The translations under genes and the position numbers were made by a program. DNA of 64,000 bases from NCBI RefSeq assembly GCF_018127785.1, contig NZ_CP072390.1:434001-498000 (forward strand). The letters are read 5' to 3'. Under the pieces are notes generated by a model, which saw only the letters and a program-made list of their open reading frames with translations, was not told the origin of the DNA and did no database searches. Source of the DNA: Prevotella scopos JCM 17725 (lineage in GTDB: Bacteria > Bacteroidota > Bacteroidia > Bacteroidales > Bacteroidaceae). Shown one piece after another: positions 2,331-61,786 of the stretch (position 1 is its first letter; each line of letters begins with the position of its first letter).

Positions 2331-2440
2331 GGTGCTTAATTGGACTTCAAAAGGGCGTTACTTAGACTCCTAAAGGGCATCTTTTGCAAGCCAATTAGGC
2401 GTCTTTTGGAAGCCAAAAGAGCATGTGTTAGTTTTGAACT
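2331..2440. repeat. 22-bp tandem array, family A copy 1
   Basis: Five degenerate units recur at exactly 22 bp. The anchor GGTGC/GGGC/AGGC/GAGC falls at 2331, 2353, 2375, 2397 and 2419. A shared unit core is GAAGCCAAAAGGGCGTCTTT. The array lies between two convergent genes. A copy about 85% identical is at 21227 and a more diverged inverted copy at about 30150. The rest of the 330-bp gap holds only AT-rich sequence. Confidence 0.85.
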
Positions 2441-2501
2441 ATGTGAAAATAGTTTACAATACGGCTAATAATCAGATGAGTTGTTCGTAGAAGATATCCT
2501 C

Positions 2502-3326
2502 TTAATTCATGTTCTCTGGTGAGAGGATAAAGTGTTCAATGACGTGTGCAACACCATCTTCTTCATTTGATAAAGTAACGAAGTCAGCTTCACTTTTAAT
2601 GTCTTCTGCTGCGTTAGCCATAGCAACACCAAGTCCCGCAAAGCGAATCATGCTAAGGTCGTTATAGCCATCGCCACAGGCAATAACCTTTTCGCGGCTG
2701 ATACCGAGTGATGAGATGAGACGGTCAAGAGAGCGTGCCTTGTCGATACCAAGTGGTACACATTCAAGGAAGAAGTCGGCAGAACGATATACATCCATCT
2801 TCCCTTCCAACTCTTTGGCCAATCTTATCTCCAACTTGTGGAGAGGGGTAGGGTCGCCAACAATCAAGCATTTGTTGATAGGATAGACCAACTGATTGAG
2901 GAAATCGTCATATTGCGTGACAGGCATCTTGTTGATAAAAGCCTCGTGTTGTACGTATTCGTCATCTTTATTAGTAGCAGCAATACCCTCACCTTGATAG
3001 GTTAGGATTTCCATTCCAGCTTTTTTGGCTTCTTGAAAGAGGATAGGTACAAGCTGTTCGTTCAATTTCTGTTCAAAAAGAACTTCGTTGTTAGTGCAAT
3101 CAATAATCTTTCCGCCATTGAAAGCGAGGATGAAACCGCCATTTTCTTTTAGTTTCAATTCTTCTGCTAAAGGGACGATGCCGTATGTAGGTCGTCCAGA
3201 TGCCAATACGACATGTACCCCAGCAGCCTGTGCTTGCATGAGAGCTTGTTTTGTACGTGGGGTAATCTCCTTTTTATTATTGGTCAGTGTGCCGTCCAAA
3301 TCGAGCACAATCATCTTATACTTCAT
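2502..3326 (-). CDS. Cof-type HAD-superfamily phosphatase
   Basis: The protein begins MKYKMIVLDLDGTLTNN, the HAD motif I (DxDGT) with nucleophile and acid/base aspartates. VLASGRPTYG is motif II, a lysine near ...GIDKARSLDRLI is motif III, and ACGDGYNDLSMIRFAG is motif IV. The C2B cap and length of about 274 aa fit the Cof/YbiV group, which dephosphorylates sugar or nucleotide phosphates or flavin/PLP intermediates; the substrate cannot be read. The frame continues upstream to 3392, but the residues before MKYK are not family-like, so the ATG at 3326 is chosen. A -7 box at 3404-3411 would also allow the longer start. Confidence 0.85.
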   Translation of the reverse strand: MKYKMIVLDLDGTLTNNKKEITPRTKQALMQAQAAGVHVVLASGRPTYGIVPLAEELKLKENGGFILAFNGGKIIDCTNNEVLFEQKLNEQLVPILFQEAKKAGMEILTYQGEGIAATNKDDEYVQHEAFINKMPVTQYDDFLNQLVYPINKCLIVGDPTPLHKLEIRLAKELEGKMDVYRSADFFLECVPLGIDKARSLDRLISSLGISREKVIACGDGYNDLSMIRFAGLGVAMANAAEDIKSEADFVTLSNEEDGVAHVIEHFILSPENMN

Positions 3327-3403
3327 CTTGTTTGTCTTCTTATTACTTTGTAATTCCCATATGGATAATGACTTATATTTATCGAAAACCATTAATCCTT
3401 GTG

Positions 3404-3411
3404 CAAAGGTA
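3404..3411 (-). promoter_or_regulatory. -7 box for the HAD gene
   Basis: The minus strand reads TACCTTTG, a match to the Bacteroidota -7 consensus TAnnTTTG. No clear TTTG -33 element is present at the usual spacing. Confidence 0.45.
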
Positions 3412-3466
3412 CGGCTTTTTATGGACTAAAGGTTGTGTTTGCCTTGATATAAAATGATAAGTATGA

Positions 3467-3607
3467 AAAAAAATTAGATGCGATACAATAAATCGCAAAC
3501 GTTTACGTGAAGGATTAACTTTCCTTTGGGTCTTTATCGTAGGCCCATTTGCTGGTGGTGTACTTGCATCAGTAATTTGGCGTGTTATTGAGCCATCTGA
3601 GAAGTAA
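3467..3607 (+). pseudogene. 3' remnant of an aquaporin (MIP family) gene
   Basis: A stop-bounded frame with no start codon encodes about 46 residues ending in LWVFIVGPFAGGVLASVIW plus a short charged tail and TAA. This resembles the last transmembrane helix of aquaporin/glycerol-facilitator proteins (W-x-F-x-V-x-P-x-x-G). Nothing upstream restores the rest of a MIP protein, and the region upstream encodes the divergent HAD promoter. It is best read as the tail left after deletion. It is followed by a strong terminator hairpin that may be the original one. Confidence 0.5.
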
Positions 3608-3631
3608 TTAATTTATCAAATAAATGTTTGG

Positions 3632-3667
3632 TTAGGCTTATTAGGCAGTCATGTCTAATAAGCCTAA
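3632..3667 (+). terminator. Hairpin after the aquaporin remnant
   Basis: A perfect 13-bp stem (TTAGGCTTATTAG with its complement) closes a 10-base loop and is followed by a T-rich tract. It lies directly downstream of the remnant stop. Confidence 0.6.
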
Positions 3668-3742
3668 TTATCTTTTATTCCAAAAACTATTGTCTTTTAT
3701 TACGGATTTTAACACTTTAGGTTTATTAAATATGTACGATGT

Positions 3743-3774
3743 TTTGGCTATCAGAAAATAAAACCGTACTTTTG
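3743..3774 (+). promoter_or_regulatory. Promoter of fba
   Basis: TTTG at 3743-3746 is followed after 20 bp by TACTTTTG at 3767-3774, matching both elements of the Bacteroidota housekeeping promoter. The predicted leader is about 45 nt. Confidence 0.7.
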
Positions 3775-3824
3775 CATGTGTAAATAGGTATAGAGTTATT
3801 AATTTTTAAAAGATAAAAGAAATT

Positions 3825-4835
3825 ATGGTAGATTACAAGAAATTAGGTCTCGTGAACACCCGTGAGATGTTTAAGAGAGCAATTGACGGCGGTTACGCTA
3901 TTCCAGCGTTCAACTTCAATAACCTTGAGCAGCTTCAGGCTATCATCAAGGCTTCTTCTGATTTGAAGTCACCAGTTATCCTTCAGGTTTCTAAGGGTGC
4001 CCGTAAGTATGCTAACCAGACTCTTCTCCGTTACCTCGCAGAGGGAGCAGTAGAGTATGCTAAGGAGTTGGGTTGCCATCATCCAGAGATTGCACTTCAC
4101 CTTGATCATGGTGATAGCTTCGAGACTTGCAAGAGCTGTGTAGACTTCGGTTTCTCTTCTGTAATGATTGACGGTTCTTCTCTTCCATATGAGGAGAATA
4201 TCGCTTTGACAAAGAAGGTTGTTGAGTATGCTCACCAGTTCGACGTAACTGTTGAGGCTGAGCTCGGCGTCCTCGCTGGTGTTGAGGATGACGTTGTAGC
4301 TGAGGTTTCTCACTATACAAAGCCAGAAGAGGTTGTTGACTTCGCTACTCGCACAGGTTGTGACTCTTTGGCTATCTCAATCGGTACTTCTCATGGTGCT
4401 TACAAGTTCACTCCAGAGCAGTGTACACGTGACCCAAAGAGTGGTCGTCTTGTTCCTCCTCCATTGGCATTCGATGTTCTCGCAGCTATCGAGAAGCAGC
4501 TTCCAGGTTTCCCAATCGTTCTCCACGGTTCTTCTTCAGTTCCTCAGGAGTATGTTGATATCATCAACGAGCATGGTGGTAAGATGCCTAACGCTGTTGG
4601 TATTCCAGAGGAGCAGCTCCGTCAGGCAGCTAAGAGTGCTGTTTGTAAGATTAACATCGACTCTGACTCTCGTCTTGCATTCACCGCTGGTGTTCGTGAG
4701 ACATTTGATGAGCACCCAGAGTACTTCGATCCACGTCAGTACTGCGGTAAGGCTCGTGAGTACATGGAGCAACTTTACAAGCACAAGATCATTGACGTTC
4801 TTGGTTCTGAGAACAAGCTTGCTAACCTCGACTAA
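3825..4835 (+). CDS. fba: Class II fructose-1,6-bisphosphate aldolase
   Basis: This Zn-dependent aldolase interconverts fructose-1,6-bisphosphate with DHAP and glyceraldehyde-3-phosphate in glycolysis and gluconeogenesis. Visible signatures are AIPAFNFNNLEQLQA near residue 25, the metal-binding LHLDHGDSF near residue 85, VMIDGSSLPYEEN near 110, VEAELGVLAG near 145, and the phosphate-binding LHGSSSVPQEY near 235. The length of 336 aa fits the class IIA/B family. Codon use is strongly biased, as expected for a highly expressed gene. It is a single-gene unit with its own promoter and terminator. Confidence 0.95.
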   Translation: MVDYKKLGLVNTREMFKRAIDGGYAIPAFNFNNLEQLQAIIKASSDLKSPVILQVSKGARKYANQTLLRYLAEGAVEYAKELGCHHPEIALHLDHGDSFETCKSCVDFGFSSVMIDGSSLPYEENIALTKKVVEYAHQFDVTVEAELGVLAGVEDDVVAEVSHYTKPEEVVDFATRTGCDSLAISIGTSHGAYKFTPEQCTRDPKSGRLVPPPLAFDVLAAIEKQLPGFPIVLHGSSSVPQEYVDIINEHGGKMPNAVGIPEEQLRQAAKSAVCKINIDSDSRLAFTAGVRETFDEHPEYFDPRQYCGKAREYMEQLYKHKIIDVLGSENKLANLD

Positions 4836-4872
4836 TCATTTGTTGAGGTCGGCTTGACAGAATAAAACAATA

Positions 4873-4905
4873 GCGGCAGTTTCCTTTTGGGAGCTGCCGC
4901 TTTTT
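4873..4905 (+). terminator. Intrinsic terminator of fba
   Basis: The stem GCGGCAG/CTGCCGC encloses a 14-base loop and is followed by TTTTTG. Confidence 0.9.
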
Positions 4906-4957
4906 GTTTTTACGAGGCAGTGCTTCGTAGGGCTTCGTAGGGTAGAGCAGGAAATGT

Positions 4958-4993
4958 CGCAGCCCCGCATGGGTTGAACCATACGGGGCTGCG
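4958..4993. terminator. GC-rich hairpin between fba and nnr
   Basis: A 15-bp stem with one mismatch (CGCAGCCCCGCATGG and its near-complement) closes a 6-base loop. It lies downstream of the minus-strand nnr stop and could end that transcript, although no long T-run follows on that side. Confidence 0.5.
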
Positions 4994-5035
4994 GTGTGCT
5001 TTGGTTGAGTTGCTGTTTATGCTTTTGGTAGGCGA

Positions 5036-6553
5036 TTAATCGTCCAGAAGCTTGAAAGCCTTAGGCAGATAATTGATAATATCTCCTGCAATAAGGCTTT
5101 CCTTACCTAATTCTTTCGCTGCTAAGTCGCCAGCAAGACCATGGAGGTACATTCCCACCATACAAGCGTTCTGCTGATGATAGCCACGAGCTAGGAGTGC
5201 TGTGATGATACCCGTGAGTACATCACCACTACCAGCTGTTGCCATACCACTATTACCTGTTGAATTAAAGATAACGTTGCCATTAGGTAAGCAGAGTGCG
5301 CTGTTATGTCCCTTAAGGATGATATAAGCCTGTAAGGACTTTGCCAACTCACGTGTACGATGGAGACGCTCATAGTCCGCATTAGCAGGAGAGCCTGTAA
5401 GACGGTCGAGTTCCTTTGCATGAGGCGTCATAATGATTCCCTTTGGCAGTTGCTGCATCCATGCACGATGGCTTGCAAGAATGTTCAAGGCATCAGCGTC
5501 CGCAACGATAGGACATTGTGCACGTCTTATCTGCGTTATCATTGCTGTAGCAGTAGGCTCCTGTCTGCCTAATCCTGGACCAATAGCAAGTGCATCGAAA
5601 TCATCTGTATCAACGGCTTCAGTGAAAGCAGTCTCCTCATGGTCCATCTGCAAGATTGCCTCTGGTACAGAAATCTGCATGATATCATAATTCTTCTTTG
5701 GCGTATGTACTATAGCCTTGCCCACACCGCTACGCAAACAGGCACGTGTGGCCAGTATAGCAGCACCTGACATGCCATAACTACCAGCAATGATAAGGGC
5801 ATTACCCATATTACCTTTGTGTGAGAAGTCATCGCGATGAAGAAGACGTGATCGAATGTCGTTCTCTTCTAAGATGTAATATTGTGCATCCGTCTTTCTG
5901 ATGAATTCCTGGCTTAAGCGAATGTCGAGCACTTTCAATCTACCAATGAATTGCTGTGCATCAGCGAAGAGAAAGGATAGTTTCCGCTCGTGTAGCGTTA
6001 GGGTGAGAGTAGCGTGAATGATATTTGCACGTACATTATACGTGTTGTCCTCTGTCATCAGACCAGATGGAACGTCAATACTCACAATCTTTGCAGGACT
6101 TTGATTGATATATTTCACCAAAGAGGCAAAACCACCAGCCAATGGCTTGTTGAGTCCAGAGCCAAATAAACCATCTATCACCAATGTGTCTGCGGTCAAT
6201 TCAGGTGGATCAAACTTTGCTGTGATTTCTGTAAAGTCTTTTGCATGTTTGCCTTCGAGCAGACGTTGACGATTTGTTATGCAGTCTTCTGACAGGTGAT
6301 TGGTAATATTAAAGAGAAATGTACTTACCTTATAGCCTTCGTTGATTAGCAAGCGTGCCACAGCAAGGGCATCGCCACCATTGTTGCCAGGTCCTGCAAA
6401 GACAACAATCGGCGTGTGTATAGACCATTCCTCCATGATAGCACGGGTAATGGCTTTTGCTGCACGCTCCATCAAATCAATCGACTTGATTGGTTCGTGT
6501 TCTATAGTGTATCTGTCCAGTTCGTGAATCTGGGCACTTGTAAATATCTTCAT
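5036..6553 (-). CDS. nnr: Bifunctional NAD(P)H-hydrate epimerase / ADP-dependent dehydratase
   Basis: This two-domain enzyme repairs hydrated NADH and NADPH. The N-terminal YjeF epimerase domain (about 1-215) shows VFAGPGNNGGDALAVARLL and IDGLFGSGLNKP. The C-terminal ribokinase-like dehydratase domain (about 225-505) shows NMGNALIIAGSYGMSGAAIL, MTPHAKELDRL and TAGSGDVLTGIITALLARG. The fused length of 505 aa is typical. A -7 box sits 8 bp before the ATG, implying a very short or absent leader. It is divergent from hpt. Confidence 0.95.
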   Translation of the reverse strand: MKIFTSAQIHELDRYTIEHEPIKSIDLMERAAKAITRAIMEEWSIHTPIVVFAGPGNNGGDALAVARLLINEGYKVSTFLFNITNHLSEDCITNRQRLLEGKHAKDFTEITAKFDPPELTADTLVIDGLFGSGLNKPLAGGFASLVKYINQSPAKIVSIDVPSGLMTEDNTYNVRANIIHATLTLTLHERKLSFLFADAQQFIGRLKVLDIRLSQEFIRKTDAQYYILEENDIRSRLLHRDDFSHKGNMGNALIIAGSYGMSGAAILATRACLRSGVGKAIVHTPKKNYDIMQISVPEAILQMDHEETAFTEAVDTDDFDALAIGPGLGRQEPTATAMITQIRRAQCPIVADADALNILASHRAWMQQLPKGIIMTPHAKELDRLTGSPANADYERLHRTRELAKSLQAYIILKGHNSALCLPNGNVIFNSTGNSGMATAGSGDVLTGIITALLARGYHQQNACMVGMYLHGLAGDLAAKELGKESLIAGDIINYLPKAFKLLDD

Positions 6554-6561
6554 AACGATGG

Positions 6562-6569
6562 CAAATTTA
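6562..6569 (-). promoter_or_regulatory. -7 box of nnr
   Basis: The minus strand reads TAAATTTG, ending 8 bp before the nnr ATG. Transcription would start at or next to the start codon. Confidence 0.5.
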
Positions 6570-6603
6570 CAAAATAAATGCGGATAGTTTGGTATTATTT
6601 TCG

Positions 6604-6611
6604 TAATTTTG
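6604..6611 (+). promoter_or_regulatory. -7 box of the hpt-adk operon
   Basis: TAATTTTG lies 23 bp upstream of the hpt ATG. The only TTTG upstream (6588) is too close to serve as -33. Confidence 0.5.
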
Positions 6612-6634
6612 CGCTAAATTATAATTAAACAAGC

Positions 6635-7746: not shown

Positions 7747-7748
7747 AC

Positions 7749-7790: not shown

Positions 7791-7794
7791 CCGT

Positions 7795-10167: not shown

Positions 10168-10196
10168 ATCTCTATTTTATGCTCTTTACGGAATTA

Positions 10197-10284
10197 TTTT
10201 CACGTAAATAAATATTTCTTGTCGTGAAAATAAATATTTCTTTTCATGAATATAATTCTTTTTTTTCATGAATATAATTCGAAA
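10197..10284. repeat. 22-bp tandem array, family C copy 1
   Basis: Four AT-rich units occur at exactly 22-bp spacing (TTTTCACG 10197, TTGTCGTG 10219, TTTTCATG 10241, TTTTCATG 10263). The interior of the units is AAATAAATATTTC or AATATAATTC. The array is related to the one at 61695. It lies in the gap between pgeF and the lipoprotein gene. Confidence 0.85.
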
Positions 10285-19435: not shown

Positions 19436-19724
19436 ACTTCCTAAAACGTTGTTGAAAGTTAATCATTAAGCGAATACATAGCTAAAACTGTCCACTGTCT
19501 ATTCTATTATCATCTTTCGACACAGAAAACCCCTTCTTTTAATATGTTGAAAATTACGCAAATAAGGAATTGAAAAATCATTATATAAATTCAAATAAAA
19601 CTTCCATAAATAAGGGAGAAAATACGTATTAAGAACAAGTTTGCAACCAACAGAAAATCAATCAGTTATAAAATTTGTCTTATAGCAGATTTACTTCACA
19701 TCATTTTAACATTTAAAATTCAAA

Positions 19725-20123
19725 ATGGGAAGTAAACATTCTAAACACAGAACATTCAGTGAGGACTTTATTCTCACTTTACTTCGTGAGTATTACTCAT
19801 CAGAAGTGTCAATTAATTTCATCTGTCGTAAGTACGGCATTAATAGTGCCAGCTTTTATCAATGGCAAAAAAAGTATGATTTAGATGAAAAAAAGCTATC
19901 TTTGTCGCATGATATTATTACTAAAGTAAAAGCTATGCGTAGTAAGAAAGCTATGGAGAAAGCCCCTCTAACTCGTGAGGAAGAGCTTGAAGAACAAGTA
20001 TCGAATTTGAAGAAAGCTTTGGAGTATTCTGAACTTCGCAATCAAGGTTTGATGAAAGTCATAGAGATAAGCAGTAAGGAATATGGTGAGGATTTGCTAA
20101 AAAAAGCTGGCGCCAAGCAGTAG
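19725..20123 (+). CDS. IS3-family transposase OrfA
   Basis: The protein starts MGSKHSKHRTFSEDFILTL. It carries a helix-turn-helix (NFICRKYGINSASFYQWQKK) that binds the terminal repeats, and a leucine-zipper-like coiled coil toward the end (EEELEEQVSNLKKALEYSEL). The 132-aa frame ends 18 bp after an A7 run where a -1 shift would enter the OrfB frame. Confidence 0.9.
   Translation: MGSKHSKHRTFSEDFILTLLREYYSSEVSINFICRKYGINSASFYQWQKKYDLDEKKLSLSHDIITKVKAMRSKKAMEKAPLTREEELEEQVSNLKKALEYSELRNQGLMKVIEISSKEYGEDLLKKAGAKQ
20099..20107 (+). other. Programmed -1 frameshift site (A7G)
   Basis: A run of seven A followed by G occurs in the OrfA frame as ctA AAA AAA G. A -1 slip continues KKSWRQAVDSL... straight into the OrfB frame with no stop, as in other IS3-family OrfAB fusions. 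Confidence 0.75.
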
Positions 20124-20206
20124 ACAGCCTTCGAGTCAGCAACCCTTGTTTATCAATTGGGCTGCTGAGTGGACTGTTTGGCAAGACTCGTGAAGGCTAT
20201 TACTCT

Positions 20207-20983
20207 GTGAGTAAAGAGAAGAGGGAGCATCGTAAACTTACTGAGAAAATTGTCGTACGTGCAGTAATGGATGTTCGTGCAGATGCTCCTCGAATAGGTG
20301 CACAGAAACTTTTGCACATGCTTATGGATATCTATCCTGGCTTAATGCTTGGGCGCGACAGGTTCTACCAGCTAATGCACAAGCATCACCTTATGCTGAA
20401 GCCATCCAGATGTCGCCACACCACGAACTCCAATCACAACTATTTCAAGTATAAGAACACGGCAAAAGGAATGGTTCTTACACGTCCTGCACAACTCTGG
20501 GTAGCAGACATCACATATATAGATACTGAGGATGGTGTGGTCTATCTTCACCTCATAACCGATGCATTCACTCATGAGATAATCGGATGGAAGCTTTCTG
20601 ACAGTCTGCAGGCTGTCAATACGCTTGCTGCCCTAGACATGGCAATAGAACATTCACAGGGTATGAATCTCTCGCTGATGACGCACCACTCTGATCGTGG
20701 GGTTCAATACTGCAGCAACGCCTACGTGGCAAGGCTGGAGAGTATACACTCGGGCATAAGCATGACTGAAGACTACAACCCTACAGATAATGCAATCGCC
20801 GAAAGAGTGAACGGAATAATAAAGCAAGAGTGGCTCTACCACATGAAACGACCGAAGAACCTCGATGATGCACGATGCACTATTGCTGGTATCATAGACT
20901 TCTACAACAATAAGAGACCCCATATGAGCAACGGCATGCTTACGCCAAGACAAATGAGAGAAAAGCACTGCAATGTAGCATAA
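20207..20983 (+). CDS. IS3-family transposase OrfB (DDE integrase)
   Basis: The catalytic DDE residues are visible in WVADITYIDTEDG (first D), THHSDRGVQYCSN (second D) and DNAIAERVNGIIKQEW (E). The frame is open upstream of the GTG at 20207 to the A7 slip site, encoding SIGLLSGLFGKTREGYYSVS, typical of the OrfB start, so the working protein is probably the OrfAB fusion. It ends in the usual PHMSNGMLTPRQ-type tail. Confidence 0.93.
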   Translation: MSKEKREHRKLTEKIVVRAVMDVRADAPRIGAQKLLHMLMDIYPGLMLGRDRFYQLMHKHHLMLKPSRCRHTTNSNHNYFKYKNTAKGMVLTRPAQLWVADITYIDTEDGVVYLHLITDAFTHEIIGWKLSDSLQAVNTLAALDMAIEHSQGMNLSLMTHHSDRGVQYCSNAYVARLESIHSGISMTEDYNPTDNAIAERVNGIIKQEWLYHMKRPKNLDDARCTIAGIIDFYNNKRPHMSNGMLTPRQMREKHCNVA

Positions 20984-21226
20984 GGGTTTCTGTGCGTTTC
21001 ATGGTATTAAATTTTGTAAGTTGAAGGAAAAATACTAACTTTGAACATGTGCTACACACGTTCAGACTTCATTGTCAAGATTTATGACTATGTAAAGCGA
21101 ATCAGTAAAGTTTCCATGGGGGTGTAAAGCTGTTCAGGAAGCAAGTAAAAAATGTGTAAACCAATTTAGTAACAATAACCAGAAAAGTGTGAAGTAAATT
21201 TAGGCATAGTCAATTGTAGAAGAAAA

Positions 21227-21336
21227 GGTGCTTAATTGGACTTCAAAAGGGCGTTAGTAAGACTTCAAAAGGGCACCTTTTGCAAGTCAATTAGGCGTCT
21301 TTTAGAAGCCAAAAGAGCATATATTAGATTTGATTT
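21227..21336. repeat. 22-bp tandem array, family A copy 2
   Basis: Five units occur at exactly 22 bp (anchors 21227, 21249, 21271, 21293, 21315). The array is roughly 85% identical to the one at 2331, and the similarity continues about 45 bp past the units. It begins 15 bp after the IS end. The rest of the gap to 21583 shows nothing recognisable. Confidence 0.85.
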
Positions 21337-24751: not shown

Positions 24752-24776
24752 GCGAGTCGTAAGGCTCGCTTTTTTT
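24752..24776 (+). terminator. Terminator of the ferredoxin gene
   Basis: The GCGAG/CTCGC stem is followed by a run of eight T. Confidence 0.85.
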
Positions 24777-24909: not shown

Positions 24910-24953
24910 TTTGGTGCGGGTGCTTAGCACAAATGGTGCGGGTGCTTAATCTC
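24910..24953. repeat. 22-bp tandem array, family B copy 1
   Basis: Two units occur 22 bp apart (GGTGCGGGTGCTTA at 24913 and 24935). The same core in inverse orientation forms the array at 41766. The 600-bp gap between the ferredoxin and the tRNA has no gene; it also holds a 2-unit, 21-bp repeat at 25175. Confidence 0.8.
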
Positions 24954-30127: not shown

Positions 30128-30216
30128 GGTTAACAGACTTATAAAAGATGCCCAGTTGAGTTGCAAAAGACGCCCTTTAAAGCTCTAATAGTCGCTCTTT
30201 AGGAAGCCAACTTTTT
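30128..30216. repeat. 22-bp tandem array, family A copy 3 (inverted, diverged)
   Basis: On the minus strand the units carry GGGC or GAGC anchors exactly 22 bp apart (plus-strand GCCC at 30150 and 30172, GCTC at 30194), with TCTTTTGCAA as in copies 1 and 2. The remainder of the ~690-bp gap between ribBA and the aminotransferase gene shows no gene. Confidence 0.7.
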
Positions 30217-30557
30217 AGGTGCTGTTTTGTAATGCGTTGATAATATGATGGTTATTGTTATACGTTTTCATTCTTGATTGATGATTTTGCTTAACTTTAA
30301 TGACACTCTTTGTTAAGACAATTCTTAATCTTTGGACCTTAGTTATGGCTTCAGGCTCATTACAATAATGATATTTAAATATAAGTTTTATAGAAGCAAG
30401 AAGCTATTTTTATTTTAGATGTGCATAATCTCACTTTATGAATTTGAAGCTCATAATCTTTCGATTGTTCCTAATTCATCAAATGACAAATCGGTACTAA
30501 AAATGTTATATAGATAAAATAAAGAAAGGAAAATTGCGTTATTAAAATGAATTTACG

Positions 30558-41509: not shown

Positions 41510-41585
41510 GGATTGATAGAATTATATAAGGGCACCAGAAAATGCACTTTAGTTCATAAGAAGTACAACTTTAAGAAGATAAAAT

Positions 41586-41625
41586 GGCTCTATAACGAAT
41601 CGTGTGAGTAATTTGTTATAGAGCC
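41586..41625 (+). terminator. Terminator of the small lipoprotein gene
   Basis: A perfect 11-bp stem (GGCTCTATAAC) closes an 18-base loop. Confidence 0.6.
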
Positions 41626-41744
41626 TAAAATGTTGTCGAAAAGTATAGCCTCGAACTAAACAAAACTCTAGACGGACCTTAGTTTTAAAACGCTTAACTC
41701 ACATTAAATCCCTACCCTTCCATATACAGTAATGGTGTTAACCC

Positions 41745-41830
41745 TTCGCACATGTGGTGCATACCATCCGCACCATAAGTGTTAAGCACCCGCACCATAT
41801 GTGCTAAGCACCCGCACCAAACATGTGGAA
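41745..41830. repeat. 22-bp tandem array, family B copy 2
   Basis: TAAGCACCCGCACCA-type units have CCGCACC anchors at 41769, 41790 and 41812 (spacings 21 and 22). ACATGTGG occurs near both ends, giving partial dyad symmetry. It lies between the lipoprotein gene and purH. Confidence 0.8.
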
Positions 41831-41970
41831 TATCAACACATAACCCATGCAATGCGTTATAGATCCGATAAAATAAAACAAAAGGTAGAAGCTTATTAGA
41901 CATTAATCAATTAGTTGACAACCTTTTGTTTTTTTTTGATTTAAAATATTGTTTAGTCGCTTATAATTAG

Positions 41971-45183: not shown

Positions 45184-47505
45184 ATGAAGAATTATGATTT
45201 AGAGAAACGTCGCCTCGTACTTAGTGCTGTTGCAATAGGTATTGTGGTGATATATACCATACGTCTTTTTGCTCTTCAGATAGCCAGTGATGATTATCGG
45301 AAGAGCGCAGACTCTAATGCTTTCTTAAAAAAGATTGAGTTCCCTTCTCGTGGCTCTATCACGGATAGAAAAGGTAAGCTGTTGGTTTTTAATCAACCTG
45401 CTTATGACATAATGGTTGTAACCAACGAGATGAAAGGACACCTTGATACGCTTGAGTTTTGTAAAGCTTTGAACATAACTAAAGCTGACTTCATTAACCG
45501 AATGAATAATATCAAGGATAGGAGCAAGAATCCTGGTTATTCTCGATTTACTCAACAACTTTTTTTCAGTCAGTTGAGTGACAAAGATTTTAGTGCTTTC
45601 CAGGAGAAACTCTATCGTTTCCCAGGCTTTTATGTCCAAAAACGCAGTGTGCGTCAATATCAACGTCCTATTGCTGCACATGTACTTGGTGATGTGGCTG
45701 AGGTGAGTCAAAGCGACATCGAAGACGATGAGTATTATCAGCCTGGTGATTATATTGGAAAGATGGGCATCGAGCGTGAGTATGAGAAGGACTTACGTGG
45801 CGTTAAGGGTGTACAAATTCTTCTGCGTGATGCTCATGGACAGATACAAGGTCGTTACCAAGATGGGAAGTATGACCAACGTCCTCACCCAGGGCGTGAC
45901 ATACAGTTGGGTATTGATGCTGATCTTCAGGAACTCGGCGAGCGTCTGATGGAAGGAAAACTTGGTGCAGTTGTGGCAATAGAGCCTAAGACTGGTCAAA
46001 TCTTAGCAATGGTTTCTTCGCCAACTTTTGACCCACGTTCAATGATCGGCAAGTTGCGTGGAAAGTATCAGCGTGAGATGACACTTGACCCAGCAAAGCC
46101 TTTACTCAATCGAGCTATTATGGGACAATATCCTCCGGGATCAACGTTTAAGACGGGACAAGCTGTCACTTATTATTCTGAAGGAGTTGTTTCAGATTCG
46201 ACACGTTATCCGTGTCATCGTGGATTCTATTTTAAGGGACTTCATGTAGGTTGTCACCCTCATGCTGCTCCAATCTCATTGGTGCCAGCTATAAGTACCT
46301 CTTGTAATAGTTATTTCTGTTGGGGATTGTATCACATGCTCTCCAATCGTAAGAAGTATAAGACGCTGGAGGATGCTATGGATGTGTGGCGTGACTACAT
46401 GGTGTCTATGGGATTCGGTTATAAGTTGGGTATTGACCTTCCTGGCGAGAAACGAGGAATGATTCCAAATGCTAAATTCTATGATAATGCTTTTAAGCGA
46501 TGGAATCCATTGTCAGTTATCTCTATCTCTATAGGACAAGGCGAAGTCAACCTTACGCCATTACAGATAGCCAATCTTGGTGCTACTATAGCCAATCGTG
46601 GTTATTATTATACTCCACATGTTGTGCGTAGTATTCAAGGTAAGAAACTCGATAAGAAGTATTTGGAGAAACACAAATCGAAGGGAACGTATAGGTCTTA
46701 TCAGGAAGTTATTGCAGGTATGGTGTCTTCTGTGCGTGGTGGAACTTGTGCTCGTGCGGTACATCCAGGTTATACTTTAGCTGGAAAAACGGGTACAGCT
46801 CAAAACCGTGGTAAAGACCACTCTGTGTTTATGGGTTTTGCACCTGTTGATACTCCGAAGATTGCTATTGCTGTCTATGTTGAAAATGGTGGATTTGGTG
46901 CTGACTTTGGTGTGCCTATCGGTTCATTGATGATAGAGCAGTACATAAACGGAAAGCTTACTCCTGGTGACGCAGCTCGTGCAACAGCTCTTCAGAGTCG
47001 CCATATCTCTTATTCTTTCAAGCGCCCTCTAACTCATGCTGATTCTGTCCGACTTGATTCAATTAAGCGTGTAAATATAATTAGAGACTCTTTGAAGAGG
47101 GTTAAGGAAAAGCAAGACCTTATAGAAGAAGAGAAGGTCAAGCAGGCAGAAGCTAAACGAGAAGCTGATGAAAAGGAAAAAAAGAAGCAACCTCAGAATG
47201 AACCTGCCATCCGTGTTGAACCCGAATTAAAGGTGAAGTCGGAGAAAGACGAAAAGGATAAGGGAGGTGATAAGAAAGAAAAAGAAAAGAACAAAGATAA
47301 TAAAGACTCTCGGAAGGATACGAAAGATAAACCTACTATTAAGGAAAAGCAAAAAGAACCTCCCAAAGACAAGCATAAGGAGCGACAAAAGGAGAAATCC
47401 AAGGATCCAATAAAAGATAAACAGAAGGAACAAAGCAAGGATAAAGCTAAGGTCCAATCAAAAGATAAACAAAGAAACAAGGAGAACGTACATCGTGCCA
47501 AGTAA
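45184..47505 (+). CDS. mrdA: Penicillin-binding protein 2 with long charged tail
   Basis: This is the elongasome transpeptidase. The N-terminal helix is VLSAVAIGIVVIYTIRLFAL and the dimerisation domain covers about 50-230. The catalytic motifs are S320-TFK, S373-C-N and K535-TG (GKTGTAQNRG). Residues ~640-773 are an unusual low-complexity tail, almost only Lys, Glu, Asp, Gln and Ser (for example KEKNKDNKDSRKDTKDK), exposed in the periplasm. The tail is absent from typical PBP2 (~620 aa). The last 11 bases overlap rodA. Confidence 0.95.
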   Translation: MKNYDLEKRRLVLSAVAIGIVVIYTIRLFALQIASDDYRKSADSNAFLKKIEFPSRGSITDRKGKLLVFNQPAYDIMVVTNEMKGHLDTLEFCKALNITKADFINRMNNIKDRSKNPGYSRFTQQLFFSQLSDKDFSAFQEKLYRFPGFYVQKRSVRQYQRPIAAHVLGDVAEVSQSDIEDDEYYQPGDYIGKMGIEREYEKDLRGVKGVQILLRDAHGQIQGRYQDGKYDQRPHPGRDIQLGIDADLQELGERLMEGKLGAVVAIEPKTGQILAMVSSPTFDPRSMIGKLRGKYQREMTLDPAKPLLNRAIMGQYPPGSTFKTGQAVTYYSEGVVSDSTRYPCHRGFYFKGLHVGCHPHAAPISLVPAISTSCNSYFCWGLYHMLSNRKKYKTLEDAMDVWRDYMVSMGFGYKLGIDLPGEKRGMIPNAKFYDNAFKRWNPLSVISISIGQGEVNLTPLQIANLGATIANRGYYYTPHVVRSIQGKKLDKKYLEKHKSKGTYRSYQEVIAGMVSSVRGGTCARAVHPGYTLAGKTGTAQNRGKDHSVFMGFAPVDTPKIAIAVYVENGGFGADFGVPIGSLMIEQYINGKLTPGDAARATALQSRHISYSFKRPLTHADSVRLDSIKRVNIIRDSLKRVKEKQDLIEEEKVKQAEAKREADEKEKKKQPQNEPAIRVEPELKVKSEKDEKDKGGDKKEKEKNKDNKDSRKDTKDKPTIKEKQKEPPKDKHKERQKEKSKDPIKDKQKEQSKDKAKVQSKDKQRNKENVHRAK

Positions 47506-56195: not shown

Positions 56196-56261
56196 TTTGA
56201 CACTATAGTGGTGCGTGTCTAGCACCATAGTGAACCAAGTCTGACACTATGGTGTTGTTTC
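56196..56261. repeat. 22-bp tandem array, family B/D
   Basis: Three units occur at exactly 22 bp (56196, 56218, 56240) with GACACTATAGTG or AGCACCATAGTG cores. TGGTGCGTGTCTAGCACCA is close to the family B unit. It lies between convergent manA and the AI-2E exporter gene. Confidence 0.75.
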
Positions 56262-56346
56262 CTTCTCTTTATACAGAGAAAAGTTCATAACCGCAATAGT
56301 AAATGTTTTTCTTTGAAGATAATCGAGCGAGTGCGATAGAGAATAA

Positions 56347-56390: not shown

Positions 56391-56409
56391 ATTTATAAAA
56401 TTCTAATCT

Positions 56410-57537: not shown

Positions 57538-57543
57538 AGTGTT

Positions 57544-58143: not shown

Positions 58144-58151
58144 AATCATTG

Positions 58152-58159
58152 CAAAGATA
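58152..58159 (-). promoter_or_regulatory. -7 box of tdk
   Basis: The minus strand reads TATCTTTG, 8 bp before the ATG at 58143. The 270 bases to rsmI have no other gene. Confidence 0.5.
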
Positions 58160-58381
58160 TATAATTTATAAAGAATAGATAAACGTTAAGCGTTAAAATT
58201 ATTGAGGAGGTGTTCACTTTGCTATATACTGCAATATTGAAGTGAGATAGAACAAGGATGTTTGCTAAAGTCTTTGTTTTTCGAAGATAATAGTTTTTAT
58301 TCTTAAATTTTAGGACATCATTGTTACTTTGTCTTATGCTTGCAAACGGAGATGATTGTTACGTAAAAAAAGCTAATTTAT

Positions 58382-58412
58382 TTTGTCCTTCTGTTCATTT
58401 ACTTTACATTTG
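58382..58412 (+). promoter_or_regulatory. Promoter of rsmI (nearly leaderless)
   Basis: TTTG (58382-58385) and TACATTTG (58405-58412) are 19 bp apart, a full consensus. The -7 box ends 9 bp before the ATG at 58422. Confidence 0.7.
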
Positions 58413-58421
58413 CAACCAACA

Positions 58422-59144
58422 ATGGGAACATTATATCTCGTACCGACACCGGTTGGAAATATGGAGGATATGACCCTCCGTGCTATCAGAATCCTGAAGG
58501 AAGCTGATTTGGTTTTGTGTGAGGATACTCGTACATCGGGTATTTTGTTGAAACATTTTGAGATAAAGAATCGTCTTATGTCTCATCATAAATTCAATGA
58601 ACATGCAAGTTCTGCTGGTATAGTCAATAGATTAAAGGCTGGTGAGACGGTTGCACTGATCTCAGATGCGGGAACTCCAGGTATCAGTGATCCAGGCTTC
58701 TTTCTCGCTCGTGAGGCGGCAGCCAATGGCATCACCGTTCAGACGCTTCCTGGTGCAACTGCTTTCGTTCCAGCTTTAGTATCAAGTGGCTTACCTTGCG
58801 ACCGATTCTGCTTTGAAGGTTTCCTCCCTCAGAAGAAGGGCCGTAAGACACATTTAGAGAGTTTAGCTGAAGAGACACGTACAATGATCTTCTATGAGTC
58901 ACCTTACAGAGTGGTGAAAACCTTAGAGCAATTTGCTGAAATCTTTGGGACAGAACGACAGATCAGTTGTTGTCGTGAGATCTCTAAGATACACGAGGAG
59001 AGTGTCCGAGGAACGTTGGCAGAGGTAATTGCTCACTTCAAAGAGACAGAACCACGTGGTGAGTTCGTCATTGTTGTGGCTGGAAAAGAAAAAATAAAGT
59101 CTTCTGATAGGAAGAAACAAACTGATAAAAATAATAATGTATGA
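58422..59144 (+). CDS. rsmI: 16S rRNA (cytidine-1402-2'-O)-methyltransferase
   Basis: RsmI 2'-O-methylates C1402 of 16S rRNA. The tetrapyrrole-methylase fold shows GTLYLVPTPVGNMEDMTLRA, EDTRTSGILLKHF, ISDAGTPGISDPG (SAM site), PGATAFVPALVSSGLP, FEGFLPQKKGRKTH, FYESPYRVVKTLE and REISKIHEE. The frame is open from 58383, but the promoter and family fit the ATG at 58422 (240 aa). It overlaps the next gene by 4 bp. Confidence 0.95.
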   Translation: MGTLYLVPTPVGNMEDMTLRAIRILKEADLVLCEDTRTSGILLKHFEIKNRLMSHHKFNEHASSAGIVNRLKAGETVALISDAGTPGISDPGFFLAREAAANGITVQTLPGATAFVPALVSSGLPCDRFCFEGFLPQKKGRKTHLESLAEETRTMIFYESPYRVVKTLEQFAEIFGTERQISCCREISKIHEESVRGTLAEVIAHFKETEPRGEFVIVVAGKEKIKSSDRKKQTDKNNNV

Positions 59145-60055
59145 ATAAACTATTAGTTCTCGCAGTATGTGGAGTTTTTGCACTGGCATCCTGCAATCAA
59201 GACAAGAAATCGGCATTGAACCCATCCGAAATACAGAGTGATTCTTTGCGCAGTGTTATTGATGCGCGTGATCATGAGATTAATGATATGATGGGAACCT
59301 TGAATGATATCCAGCAGGGCTTTGCTGCTATCAACGAGGCAGAGAATAGAGTAACTATCGCTAAGAATGGTGAGGCTGCTAACAAGGCAGAACAGATGAA
59401 GGAGAATATTCAGTTCATTGCTCAGCGTATGCAGGAAAACCGTGAGCTCATTAAGAAGTTGCAGCAACAGTTGCGTGAGACAGGGTTTAAGGGTGACGCA
59501 ATGAAGGAAACTCTTAGCCGTCTGACAAGTCAATTGAGCGCAAAGGAGACTGAGTTGAAGCAGTTGCGTGCTGAATTGGAGTCAAAGAATATTCATATTA
59601 AGGAACTTGATGAGACAATCACTGGTCTGAATACAGATGTTACTAATCTCAAGACTGATAAGGAGAACCTTACAGCAGAGAAAGAAAACCTCACCAAGGA
59701 GAAAGAGAATCTCCAGACAGAGAGCAATCAGAAGACTGAGACTATCAATACACAGGACAGGCAGTTGAATACTGGTTGGTATGTATTCGGTACTAAGAGC
59801 GAGTTGAAGGCACAGCGCATCCTTGACGGTGGCAAGGTTCTTCAGGGTTCTTTCAACAAGGGTTACTTCACAAAGATCGATATCCGTGTTAACAAGGAAA
59901 TCAAGCTTTACAGCAAGAGTGCACATCTGTTAACTGCTCACCCAAGCAGCAGCTACACGCTGACAACTGATACAAACGGACAGTATGTACTCCGTATCAC
60001 TGACCCGCAGACATTCTGGAGCACAAGTAAATACTTGGTTATTCAGGTTAGATAA
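59141..60055 (+). CDS. Coiled-coil lipoprotein of unknown function
   Basis: The lipobox LASC is at about residue 18. Residues ~30-205 form a long coiled coil (MKENIQFIAQRMQENRELIK, AKETELKQLRAELESKNIHI, with ENLTAEKENLTKEKENLQTE repeats). A ~95-residue globular C-terminal domain follows (NTGWYVFGTKSELKAQRIL, FTKIDIRVNKEIKLYSKSAH, TFWSTSKYLVIQV). It is translationally coupled to rsmI (ATGA overlap). I know no function; an envelope role is likely. Confidence 0.8.
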   Translation: MNKLLVLAVCGVFALASCNQDKKSALNPSEIQSDSLRSVIDARDHEINDMMGTLNDIQQGFAAINEAENRVTIAKNGEAANKAEQMKENIQFIAQRMQENRELIKKLQQQLRETGFKGDAMKETLSRLTSQLSAKETELKQLRAELESKNIHIKELDETITGLNTDVTNLKTDKENLTAEKENLTKEKENLQTESNQKTETINTQDRQLNTGWYVFGTKSELKAQRILDGGKVLQGSFNKGYFTKIDIRVNKEIKLYSKSAHLLTAHPSSSYTLTTDTNGQYVLRITDPQTFWSTSKYLVIQVR

Positions 60056-60073
60056 TCAAAGAAAACAAAATAA

Positions 60074-60110
60074 GAAAAGAGGCATTCTCATTGTAGGGAT
60101 GCCTCTTTTC
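60074..60110 (+). terminator. Terminator of the rsmI operon
   Basis: GAAAAGAGGCAT and ATGCCTCTTTTC form a perfect 12-bp stem followed by TTATGCCTTT. Confidence 0.8.
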
Positions 60111-60199
60111 TTATGCCTTTAAACCAAACTTGAACGGTTATTGTTGTTTTTGTAAGTTTTATTCTATTGTATCACTCACTACAACGCTCAAAGCAAGCC

Positions 60200-60589
60200 T
60201 TATGAATGTGGTGTTTCGTCTTTTAATTCTGCTAATTTTGTGCTAAATAACAAGCTGAGTGTGACGAAGCCTGCACCGATAGCCAATCCAATATACTGAA
60301 CGTTGTGCAGCAAAGTAAGGATGAACTCAGATTGCGTTCCGTCAATATAGCGGTCAAAGATGGTGGGCAGTGTGAAACTTGCAAGCGTCACAATACAGCC
60401 CAAAACAACACCGACAGCAAGCAGTTTTAGCGACATCAGTTTGTTCTTTCGGCTCTCCGCACGTTGATATGCCTTAACTTCTTCGATGAGTTCCATCTGT
60501 CGTTGCAGTCTTTGCATGAAGGCATTGTCATCCGACAGTTGTGGATGATAGTCCGAGAGCAAGTCTTTCAAGAATTTATCTTCGTTCAT
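60200..60589 (-). CDS. Two-helix membrane protein, probable anti-sigma partner
   Basis: The 129-aa protein starts MNEDKFLKDLLSDYHPQL and has an ~45-residue N-terminal cytoplasmic segment with DNAFMQRLQRQMELIEEVKA. Two membrane helices follow (LKLLAVGVVLGCIVTLASFT, VQYIGLAIGAGFVTLSLLFS). It overlaps the ECF sigma gene by 4 bp, so it is probably its regulator. It lacks a recognisable ZAS zinc motif. The function is inferred from position. Confidence 0.65.
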   Translation of the reverse strand: MNEDKFLKDLLSDYHPQLSDDNAFMQRLQRQMELIEEVKAYQRAESRKNKLMSLKLLAVGVVLGCIVTLASFTLPTIFDRYIDGTQSEFILTLLHNVQYIGLAIGAGFVTLSLLFSTKLAELKDETPHS

Positions 60590-61068
60590 CTTTCCAAAAT
60601 ATGTTTAAGTTCTTGCCGTCCACGTGAGAGTTGTTTCTTAATCGCATCCTCACTGTTTTCGGTTATCTCTGCAATCTCTTTTATCTGATAACCCTGCATA
60701 TAATAGAGCAGGATACTTGTGCGCATTGTCTCCGAGAGCGTTGCCAACGCAGTGTGTAGTTCCTGATAGCGGAAGGCATCATCACTCTTACTGTTCCCTT
60801 GGAGCGTGATAGCCTTCTCAAGGGGTAGTTCCTGTTGGTGTTTCTGTTTGCGACGTGAGTCGATGAAGACACGATAAGCAATTTTCATTAGCCAAGCCGA
60901 GAACTGTCCACGTTCGTCATATTGACTACTGCGAAGGTAGGCTTTGATGAGAGCCTCTTGAGCAATATCGTCAGCTTCAGCACCATTGCCGCAGCATAAA
61001 GCCGTCAGGAACCGGCGTAGATGTGCCTGCTCCCGACTGACCTGTTCGACGAATTGTTCTCTTGTCAT
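60586..61068 (-). CDS. ECF-type RNA polymerase sigma factor
   Basis: The 160-aa protein has region 2 (GNGAEADDIAQEALIKAYLR, GQFSAWLMKIAYRVFIDSRR) and region 4 (LATLSETMRTSILLYYMQGY then QIKEIAEITENSEDAIKKQL). Only these two regions are present, as in extracytoplasmic-function sigma factors. It sits between a DUF6249-like membrane protein (6 bp upstream) and the overlapping putative anti-sigma gene. Target promoters are unknown. Confidence 0.9.
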   Translation of the reverse strand: MTREQFVEQVSREQAHLRRFLTALCCGNGAEADDIAQEALIKAYLRSSQYDERGQFSAWLMKIAYRVFIDSRRKQKHQQELPLEKAITLQGNSKSDDAFRYQELHTALATLSETMRTSILLYYMQGYQIKEIAEITENSEDAIKKQLSRGRQELKHILER

Positions 61069-61074
61069 AATAAC

Positions 61075-61530
61075 CTAATCGTTGTCTTTCAAGTTTTCCA
61101 AAGTCTTTTTGGCATTGTTATAGGCAGCCAACAGCCCGCATCCTGCAGCTAATGGGACAACACCAAGTATAGAGCCTATAGGGATAAATTCTTCAGCAAA
61201 ACCTTGCAAGATGCTCAGAGCTATAATAACCAGGATGGTTATCGCTCCCCCGATAAGGCAAATTGTTCCCCAAAGTAGTTCTTGGTGCATTTTTGTCATC
61301 AGTTGCTCTTTATATGACTTTTTTGGAGGGTTCAGTTTGTTGAGGAACTCCTGCACGTCAACCTCAGGATTCTTTTCGATGACAGCCATAACAATCTCAC
61401 TCCTTTTGGTCGCTTCAAGTTGTTCGTTTCTATAGTAGAGCCAAACCATTACGATTGGAAGAACTACTCCACATGCTATTGGAACGAGACTATCAATAAT
61501 TGAATTTAATATTACATAATTCATAATCAT
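61075..61530 (-). CDS. DUF6249-like membrane protein
   Basis: The ~151-aa protein has an N-terminal helix (SLVPIACGVVLPIVMVWLYY), a cytoplasmic stretch (IVMAVIEKNPEVDVQEFLNK) and two further helices (GTICLIGGAITILVIIALSI, GSILGVVPLAAGCGLLAAYN). Similar proteins precede ECF sigma genes in Bacteroidota. An alternative ATG is 6 bp downstream at 61524. It is the first gene of the sigma operon; the role is not known. Confidence 0.7.
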   Translation of the reverse strand: MIMNYVILNSIIDSLVPIACGVVLPIVMVWLYYRNEQLEATKRSEIVMAVIEKNPEVDVQEFLNKLNPPKKSYKEQLMTKMHQELLWGTICLIGGAITILVIIALSILQGFAEEFIPIGSILGVVPLAAGCGLLAAYNNAKKTLENLKDND

Positions 61531-61694
61531 TTATTTTTAGTATGTTATACATTTGGTTTTCTTTCTGAACCGATTCACTTGTATAACGTTATTAGTTTGT
61601 AGAAGGTGACATCAAAGGCATAAATTTATTTGTTTTATGGTATTAATTGTATTCTTGATAATGGTTCTTTTTTATGCTTACAATAACTTTTGAG

Positions 61695-61786
61695 CGAATT
61701 ATTTACATGAAAAGAAATATTTATTGTCGTGTAAATAATTATTTTTCTTCATGAAAATAAATATTTCTTTTCATGTAAATAATTCG
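61695..61786. repeat. 22-bp tandem array, family C copy 2, with perfect 31-bp inverted repeat
   Basis: CATG/CGTG anchors fall at 61706, 61728, 61750 and 61772, exactly 22 bp apart. Bases 61695-61725 are the exact reverse complement of 61756-61786. The units match those at 10197. The rest of the 419-bp gap to tadA shows no gene. Confidence 0.88.

What the first reader, a model, noticed from the sequence alone, without database searches (positions are those of the whole stretch)
2331..61786. Eight intergenic arrays share a 22-bp period across unrelated sequence families
At 2331, 10197, 21227, 24910, 30150, 41769, 56196 and 61706 the gaps contain 2-5 degenerate units whose anchor words recur every 22 bp (one 21-bp step at 41769). 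The families differ in sequence: GGGC-type (A), GGTGCGGGTGC-type (B), GACACTATAGTG (B/D) and TTTTCATGAAAA AT-rich (C). A common period without a common sequence suggests a shared constraint. 22 bp is about two turns of B-DNA, so a protein could bind the same helix face repeatedly, or a copying process could have a fixed step. All arrays avoid coding sequence and sit after gene ends. I know of no described family matching this.
Basis: seen in the sequence. Interest (0 to 1): 0.8.

Follow-up and report, generated by a model that had tools for sequence, protein, structure and literature searches.

The report
Prevotella's shared 22-base intergenic repeat arrays
Prevotella genomes carry many short repeat arrays between genes that differ completely in sequence yet very often repeat every 22 bases, which suggests that the spacing itself matters to the cell, although what reads it is not known.

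Summary
Lag 22 (with 44) is the strongest intergenic autocorrelation in the window, in 464 kb of its genome, and in pooled 20-kb pieces of 20 other Prevotella genomes, whose arrays look unrelated in sequence. It is weak in other genera of the family (z 2.0) and absent in other families of the order (z 0.5).

The arrays are parts of dispersed elements. Family B is the core of a MITE of about 280 bp (24-bp inverted ends, 8-bp target duplications, empty site in three sister species). Family A lies inside a MITE of about 590 bp sharing its ends with ISL3 insertion sequences. Family C is a 92-bp element, usually with exactly four 12-bp dyads at 22-bp steps. It is shared between species at the same sites, changes three times more slowly than its flanks, and reappears in another species with altered but still palindromic dyads.

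The closest known element is the 23-bp BrickBuilt MITE of Porphyromonas. My best explanation is helix-phased binding sites for an oligomeric protein (about 0.4). The phasing is inferred: no protein was identified. 'After gene ends' is only a tendency. A fixed copying step is disfavoured, though on small numbers.

The parts
2327..2436 (+). Family A array: five 22-bp units (AAAAGGTGCTTAATTGGACTTC / AAAAGGGCGTTACTTAGACTCC / ...)
   Evidence: present at the same place in G170 and G372
10190..10281 (.). Family C element: four dyads at 22-bp steps, ends GAATTA...TAATTCG
   Evidence: same place in G170 and G372
19675..21211 (+). Insertion sequence (rve integrase, ORF 20207-20983) inserted at the left edge of the second family A array; absent in G170, G156 and G372
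   Evidence: boundaries approximate, from BLAST ends
21223..21332 (+). Family A array: five 22-bp units
   Evidence: present in G170, G156 and G372
24912..24948 (+). Family B-type array, about 1.7 units (TGGTGCGGGTGCTTAGCACAAA); possibly a decayed MITE, since one degenerate B-like end (6 mismatches in the 24-bp pattern) lies at 24776
   Evidence: no pair of B ends; gap sequence differs in G170, G156 and G372
30144..30222 (-). Degenerate family A-like array on the reverse strand; gap absent or different in G170, G156 and G372
   Evidence: family assignment by eye
41578..41585 (+). Left target-site duplication GATAAAAT
41586..41866 (-). Family B MITE, 281 bp, terminal inverted repeats GGCTCTATAACGAATCGTGTGAGT / GGATCTATAACGCATTGCATGGGT
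   Evidence: empty site in G170, G156 and G372
41768..41819 (-). 22-bp array inside the MITE (CCGCACCATAAGTGCTAAGCAC on the + strand)
41867..41874 (+). Right target-site duplication GATAAAAT
56199..56254 (.). GACACTATAGTG-type array, about 2.5 units; sister species carry a B-like array in the same gap
61695..61786 (.). Family C element: four dyads, long complementary outer arms; its inner 34 bp is reverse-complemented in G170

Best explanation
The arrays are the working cores of several families of short, dispersed, non-coding intergenic elements. Two of them (A and B) are carried by MITEs with ISL3-type ends. The third (C) is an older, mostly fixed 92-bp element of four dyads. Shown: the families, their ends, dispersal, exact 22-bp register, dyads, base-level constraint in C, and recurrence of the period with unrelated-looking sequences across Prevotella. 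Inferred: each unit is a binding site for a dimeric, self-associating DNA-binding protein, and 22 bp (two turns at about 11 bp per turn in supercoiled DNA, recalled) puts successive units on one helix face, so that a stack of about 2-5 dimers forms a nucleoprotein patch between genes. Each lineage changes the recognised sequence and keeps the spacing.
For: Register: 94 of 110 neighbouring C dyads are exactly 22 bp apart, 11 are 44 apart and 5 are 20-21. Size: four dyads in 35 of 41 elements (G000), 28 of 32 (G170) and 12 of 15 (G108). Constraint: 50 of 1560 array positions substituted (3.2%) against 548 of 5665 flank positions (9.7%) in 21 ortholog pairs. By position in the unit the core of the first dyad and the outer AA/TTT of AAATATTT are slow (0-0.014), and the fastest are the free base between the dyads (0.106), the centre of AAATATTT (0.086), the second T (0.082) and the other free base (0.061). 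Dyads change but stay dyads in G108: TTTTCATGAAAA becomes TTTACACGTAAA / TTTACGTGTAAA at the same spacing. The dyad is not enriched outside arrays: 5 isolated copies at up to 1 mismatch in 464 kb against 0-5 for 11 control palindromes. The period is genus-wide with unrelated-looking units. Old degenerate arrays prefer 22 far more than exact two-copy duplications do. B shows no array orientation bias relative to tandem genes (5 same, 5 opposite) and A leans opposite (4, 10), which does not favour an RNA role.
Against: No protein was identified or tested. Indels are not clearly rarer in C arrays (3 in 1675 bp) than in flanks (17 in 5670 bp). Some period-22 arrays of other species show no obvious dyad (L240, L246, second array of L238). 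The self-complementarity excess of units is modest, and in the own genome it is no larger than for neighbouring periods (7 of 26 vs 4 of 11; other Prevotella 14 of 73 vs 4 of 55). The orthologous C elements were found by pattern in both genomes, which favours conserved ones. A conserved spacing read by one protein does not easily explain unrelated recognition sequences; one would need many proteins or recognition of structure. In G000 families A and B may simply be passengers of transposition.
Confidence: 0.4

Rival explanations
1. Selfish passengers: the 22-bp units are transposase or accessory binding sites that help MITEs and MITE-like elements move, and the period is a property of one transposase type common in Prevotella. 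They serve the element, not the cell.
For: B has 24-bp terminal repeats and 8-bp target duplications in 17 of 27 copies, 11 of them exact, plus an empty site in three sisters. A shares its terminal repeat with ISL3 elements of the same genome. Even the solo array at 24912 has one degenerate B-like end. Transposon ends with about 22-bp protein sites are known (Tn7 TnsB; recalled).
Against: C has no such ends beyond CGAATTA and no target duplication seen by eye, sits at the same places in different species (25 flank-matched pairs, 22 of them with at least 600 of 800 flank bases) and is more conserved than its flanks. The B-like arrays of G170, G156 and G372 in the 56196 gap, and of G156 and G372 in the 30150 gap, show no B ends at up to 8 mismatches.
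Confidence: 0.25
2. RNA-level structure: transcribed arrays fold into long hairpins (22 bp is two turns of an A-form duplex, recalled) that protect, terminate or process transcripts at gene ends.
For: The C element at 61694-61787 folds into a long hairpin (z -11.6), and the other five window arrays folded have z -2.2 to -4.4 (single-strand DNA energies). More period-22 arrays than expected fold better than unit-permuted versions: 13 of 24 (G000) and 15 of 39 (other Prevotella) at p<0.05. BrickBuilt is reported to have promoter activity and long predicted stems (PMC4596501).
Against: Arrays of other periods also often pass that test (5 of 15 and 15 of 45). Elements occur in divergent gaps too (C in G000 6 of 46). 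There is no favourable orientation bias. The C copy at 10190-10282 is not a clean hairpin although shared between species. No Rfam match in the window other than a tRNA.
Confidence: 0.15
3. Mutational step: a Prevotella replication or repair process duplicates DNA in 22-bp steps, and the arrays are neutral products.
For: The period is shared without sequence and is largely limited to one genus. Exact two-copy duplications show a slight peak at 22 (5, against 2 at 21 and 1 at 23). A whole-unit 22-bp deletion is seen between species (L023 vs L158).
Against: Only 5 of 36 exact two-copy duplications are 22 bp long and two of the five belong to longer arrays (a C element in L146 and the four-unit array of L238), whereas 82 of 233 degenerate arrays are. 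C arrays change more slowly than flanks. The number of C units is mostly four.
Confidence: 0.12
4. One ancestral 22-bp array diverged into all families, so the common period is only inheritance.
For: C in G000 and C-prime in G108 are clearly related by sequence and layout.
Against: Units of A, B, C and of the arrays in G026, L238, L244, L288 and L305 look unrelated on reading; at such divergence an unselected exact register would be expected to decay by small indels. No formal homology test was run.
Confidence: 0.08

Closest known systems
BrickBuilt MITE of Porphyromonas gingivalis (Klein et al. 2015, PMC4596501)
   Same: Intergenic minisatellite inside a MITE with leader and tail; 19 dispersed copies in one strain; species-limited; predicted stem-loops; period of about two helix turns.
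   Different: 23-bp unit, 1 to about 23 copies, IS5-like 12-bp ends, one family. Here: 22 bp, about 2-5 units, several unrelated-looking families, ISL3-like ends for A and B, and for C no MITE ends, a count of mostly four and conserved positions.
PINSR, 188-bp Prevotella intermedia/nigrescens group repeat (Naito et al. 2015, PMC4755523)
   Same: Prevotella, intergenic, 177-184 copies, lineage-specific, no terminal inverted repeats, about three quarters of the sites conserved between two strains.
   Different: 188 bp; no 22-bp periodicity reported in the section read. Its consensus is in a figure, so identity with any family here could not be tested.
MITEs of the ISL3 insertion sequence family (recalled hallmarks: GGnTCT ends, 8-bp target duplications)
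   Same: B and A have such ends, B has 8-bp duplications, and A's ends equal those of ISL3 transposase elements in the same genome.
   Different: The internal 22-bp arrays; and no transposase gene with B's ends was found.
REP/BIME elements of enterobacteria (recalled)
   Same: Species-specific palindromic intergenic repeats in clusters.
   Different: No 22-bp tandem register (recalled); REP units are longer hairpins tied to a RAYT transposase, which was not looked for here.
TAACTGA direct repeats of Beggiatoaceae, Cyanobacteria and a few Bacteroidetes (PMC4679880, passages seen)
   Same: Mostly intergenic arrays of two to six short units, of unexplained function.
   Different: One conserved heptamer; in the main genome mostly just upstream of start codons.

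Membership tests
MITE of ISL3 type (family B) | Terminal inverted repeats flanking a short non-coding body | tested here: met
   126 terminal-repeat matches against 0 control matches; 27 credible pairs, 26 of them 240-303 bp and one of 521 bp
MITE of ISL3 type (family B) | 8-bp target-site duplication and empty sites | tested here: met
   17 of 27 copies with 8 bp at up to 1 mismatch, 3 more with 7 bp, 7 without; empty site of the window copy in G170, G156 and G372
MITE of ISL3 type (family B) | Autonomous partner with the same ends | tested here: not met
   None of the 11 ISL3-transposase loci of this genome shows B-type ends at up to 5 mismatches; other transposase families were not searched
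MITE of ISL3 type (family A) | Ends equal to those of an ISL3 element in the genome | tested here: met
   GGTTCTTCCGTTAAATG ends bound both the ISL3 elements L111 and L113 and the array-bearing elements L080 (8-bp duplication, 0 mismatches) and L071 (3 mismatches). Only these two complete copies were found in the G000 loci held; three more are in sister species
MITE (family C) | Terminal repeats with target-site duplication | tested here: inconclusive
   Inverted ends CGAATTA/TAATTCG, no duplication seen by eye, no clean empty site found
BrickBuilt | 23-bp tandem unit | tested here: not met
   Period 22
BrickBuilt | IS5-like GAGACCTTTGCA ends | tested here: not met
   B and A ends differ (BrickBuilt ends)
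PINSR | 188-bp consensus sequence | not testable with these tools
   Consensus only in a figure
Known Rfam RNA family | Match at gathering score | tested here: not met
   Only a tRNA in the window

The most novel reading that the evidence does not exclude
Prevotella possesses a previously undescribed class of chromosomal nucleoprotein-array elements defined by geometry, not sequence: about 2-5 (in C mostly four) dyad units at 22 bp. A fast-evolving, self-associating DNA-binding system reads them and serves a chromosome-wide role. C elements lie almost only on the larger chromosome (37 of 39 in G170, 40 of 48 in G000), as chromosome organisation or segregation sites would.
Probability: 0.2. Interest if true: 0.9.

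Novelty: new variant of a known kind. Interest (0 to 1): 0.62.

Why it matters
If the spacing is what is conserved, Prevotella offers a natural series in which recognition sequence and geometry of a DNA array have been separated by evolution, so the rule that sets tandem-repeat periods becomes testable. The elements are also a sizeable, unannotated part of intergenic DNA in a major human-associated genus, and the MITE-borne ones supply new intergenic sequence to genes.

Tried and rejected
Tried without result: a B-type autonomous transposon among the ISL3 loci; empty sites for C elements (the one candidate alignment was too poor to show a junction); a gene-context rule (C elements in G000 31 tandem, 9 convergent and 6 divergent of 46, while gap bases in the sample are 56, 20 and 24%); indel depletion; GC skew as a map of origin and terminus (too few points, noisy).

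Considered and dropped: an invertible switch at 61706. The inner 34 bp is inverted in G170, but the loop of an ordinary terminator hairpin beside another C element is inverted between the same species too (L002 vs L153), so core inversion of palindromes looks generic. A resemblance of ATTTTCATGAAAAT to ParB/Noc-type boxes is recalled only and was not tested. A fixed four-copy rule for all families was dropped: copy numbers elsewhere spread from 2 to 6. 'Hairpin for every array' was dropped: arrays of other periods also pass the fold test.

Weak points: gene models are ORFs of at least 90 codons, not annotation. The chromosome counts (8 of 48 and 2 of 39 on the smaller chromosome) were made by hand from the listings (cut at about 100 places; some clusters are single hits); their probabilities were computed (7e-5 and 1e-7). 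A notebook entry and one search used a miscount (38 of 45) that is corrected here. The per-position table included the inverted pair; one search repeats it without. Pooled Prevotella stretches include syntenic regions of sister species, so they are not all independent. The TRF rows for 80 loci come from one orthologous region (mreB).
Full report
WHERE. The window is G000:C2:434001-498000 of a 3.30-Mb genome in three contigs, two of them 1.44 and 1.86 Mb.

THE OBSERVATION. TRF finds period 22 at five of the eight places and the other three show it on reading. Intergenic autocorrelation in the window peaks at lag 22 (z 5.1) and 44 (4.7) against 100 dinucleotide shuffles. In 20 further 20-kb pieces of the genome lag 22 has z 10.4, the highest of lags 8-120; lag 9 (8.0) and lag 44 (6.3) follow. 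Over window and pieces 26 of 83 intergenic TRF rows at score 40 or more have period 22, one has 21 and one 24. Unit words are dispersed genome-wide: C 104 forward and 109 reverse (control 2 and 2), B 107 and 89 (2 and 2), A 24 and 16 (7 and 0).

FAMILY B IS A MITE CORE. Aligning 27 oriented B loci (of 30 fetched, near-duplicates removed) shows conserved DNA far beyond the array, ending in GGCTCTATAACGAATCGTGTGGGT and its reverse complement. Those ends occur 126 times in the genome at up to 3 mismatches, against 0 for the control. Of 31 end pairs in the DNA held, I set aside four as spurious (239, 575, 638 and 755 bp). Of the other 27, 17 have an 8-bp target duplication with at most one mismatch (11 exact), 3 have 7 bp, and 7 have none. 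The window's copy is 41586-41866 with GATAAAAT on both sides. In G170, G156 and G372 the flanks run straight through (41578 and 41872 adjoin), a clean empty site. Such ends and duplications are those of the ISL3 family (recalled); none of the 11 ISL3-transposase loci in the genome has B's ends. The B-like arrays of sister species in the gaps at 56196 and 30150 show no B ends at up to 8 mismatches, while the window's short array at 24912 has one degenerate end at 24776 (6 mismatches) and may be a decayed copy. So an array of this type seems able to exist without the MITE, but this rests on few loci.

FAMILY A. Conserved DNA around A arrays reaches, in several copies, an end like GGTTCTTCCGTTAAATG, the same as the ends of the 1306-bp ISL3 elements L111 and L113. 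Complete A elements of 587 and 589 bp in G000 and of 652, 652 and 695 bp in three sisters were found; one (L080) has a perfect 8-bp duplication, the others have 2-4 mismatches. The arrays at 2327 and 21223 are present at the same places in sister species; an rve-type insertion sequence has entered the left edge of the second one in G000 and not in G170, G156 or G372.

FAMILY C. This one is different. Elements consist of a 12-bp dyad, one free base, AAATATTT, one free base, repeated, with ends CGAATTA and TAATTCG and little conserved beyond. The count is four dyads in 35 of 41 (G000), 28 of 32 (G170) and 12 of 15 (G108). Spacings are exactly 22 in 94 of 110 (G000), 75 of 91 (G170) and 43 of 51 (G108); most others are 44, where a unit is too degenerate to score. 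Of 46 elements in G000 and 39 in G170, 25 pair up by their flanks, 22 of them with at least 600 of 800 flank bases. In 21 of those (dropping the inverted one) substitutions are 50 of 1560 in arrays and 548 of 5665 in flanks. Slow positions are the core of the first dyad and the outer AA/TTT of AAATATTT (0-0.014); fast ones are the free base between the dyads (0.106), the centre of AAATATTT (0.086), the second T (0.082) and the other free base (0.061). Caveat: both members of a pair had to match the search word, which favours conserved elements. Indels are 3 in 1675 array bases and 17 in 5670 flank bases, not clearly different. Outside arrays the dyad is no commoner than 11 control palindromes.

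THE SAME LAYOUT, OTHER LETTERS. Unit counts with up to 3 mismatches in nine relatives: G170 185, G156 197, G372 215, G334 468, G108 41, G403 11, G148 10, G026 4, G187 4; reversed-pattern controls 1-4 each. In G108 the word is TTTACACGTAAA or TTTACGTGTAAA, with the same second dyad and very similar ends. G026, which lacks these families above background, has other 22-bp arrays in the syntenic 60 kb: 8 rows of period 22 at score 40, 5 of 10 intergenic rows at score 50.

HOW WIDE. With one method: own genome z22=7.3, 26 of 62 TRF rows; 20 other Prevotella genomes, one 20-kb stretch each, z22=8.1 (top lag), 14 of 33 rows, 9 of 20 stretches; G026 z22=9.3; 20 genomes from other genera of the family z22=2.0, 4 of 14 rows, 4 of 20 stretches; 20 genomes from other families of the order z22=0.5, 1 of 11 rows, 1 of 20 stretches. 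In 80 named Prevotellaceae loci around mreB, period 22 has 29 intergenic rows, 21 has 14, 23 has 10, in 20 of 80 loci; the short periods 7 (43) and 14 (28) are a separate class. The units of different species look unrelated, and several carry alternating dyads 11 bp apart (L288 of Hoylesella loescheii, L305, L238). Self-complementarity is enriched but not universal: in other Prevotella 14 of 73 units at p<0.05 against 4 of 55 for neighbouring periods, but in the own genome 7 of 26 against 4 of 11; fold test 28 of 63 period-22 arrays against 20 of 60 others in Prevotella.

MECHANISM. Period, dyads, base-level constraint on C and lack of isolated dyads together point to multi-site protein binding with helical phasing; this is inference. 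On a copying step: exact duplications of two copies are 5 at 22 bp of 36 with units of 12-44 bp (2 at 21, 1 at 23), whereas degenerate arrays of three or more copies are 82 of 233 at 22, with 2 at 20, 22 at 21, 3 at 23 and 6 at 24 (stretches not all independent). Against a purely RNA role: no favourable orientation (B 5 same and 5 opposite, A 4 and 10) and presence in divergent gaps. A selfish role is plain for B in this genome and remains possible for the rest.

LITERATURE. Full text searched (open-licence PubMed Central only). BrickBuilt (PMC4596501: outline with abstract and sections 5, 7 part 1 and 8 read) is the nearest kind; the paper notes that 22-, 23- and 41-nt tandem repeats had been reported in P. 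gingivalis W83. PINSR (PMC4755523: outline with abstract and section 3.4 read) is another Prevotella intergenic repeat. PMC5771137 and PMC4679880 were seen as passages only. None of the listings showed a description of 22-bp arrays of several sequences in Prevotella; subscription papers were not covered.

Noticed in passing
window 61695-61786 vs L135 (G170) around 2803: The inner 34 bp of a C element is exactly reverse-complemented between species; the loop of an ordinary terminator hairpin next to the C element of L002/L153 is inverted as well.
   Followed up: partly
window 19675-21211 (= L069); also loci L061, L074-L077, L079, L082, L087: One insertion sequence (rve integrase in the window copy; end TGACTATGCCTAAATTTACTTCACAC) lies directly beside the family A array in nine of the 28 A loci listed, as if it targets them.
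   Followed up: partly
G170 and G000, listings: C elements sit almost only on the larger chromosome: 37 of 39 in G170 (p 1e-7) and 40 of 48 in G000 (p 7e-5); hand counts, probabilities.
   Followed up: partly
L244 (G099) 2108, 5836, 9442, 12472, 17339: A 22-bp unit family (AAGATTGCGTTGCATTCTTCGC) recurs at five places in one 20-kb stretch, so it may be present in hundreds of copies in that genome.
   Followed up: no
loci L256-L335: Intergenic repeats of period 7 and 14 are also common in Prevotellaceae (43 and 28 TRF rows), a second periodic class.
   Followed up: no
window 47365-47480: A 24/48-bp tandem repeat inside the end of a long ORF (45184-47505); repeats of period 24 with different copy number lie at the syntenic place in sister species.
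   Followed up: no
window 56196 gap vs G170, G156 and G372: The same intergenic gap holds a GACACTATAGTG-type array in this genome and a B-like array in three sister species.
   Followed up: partly
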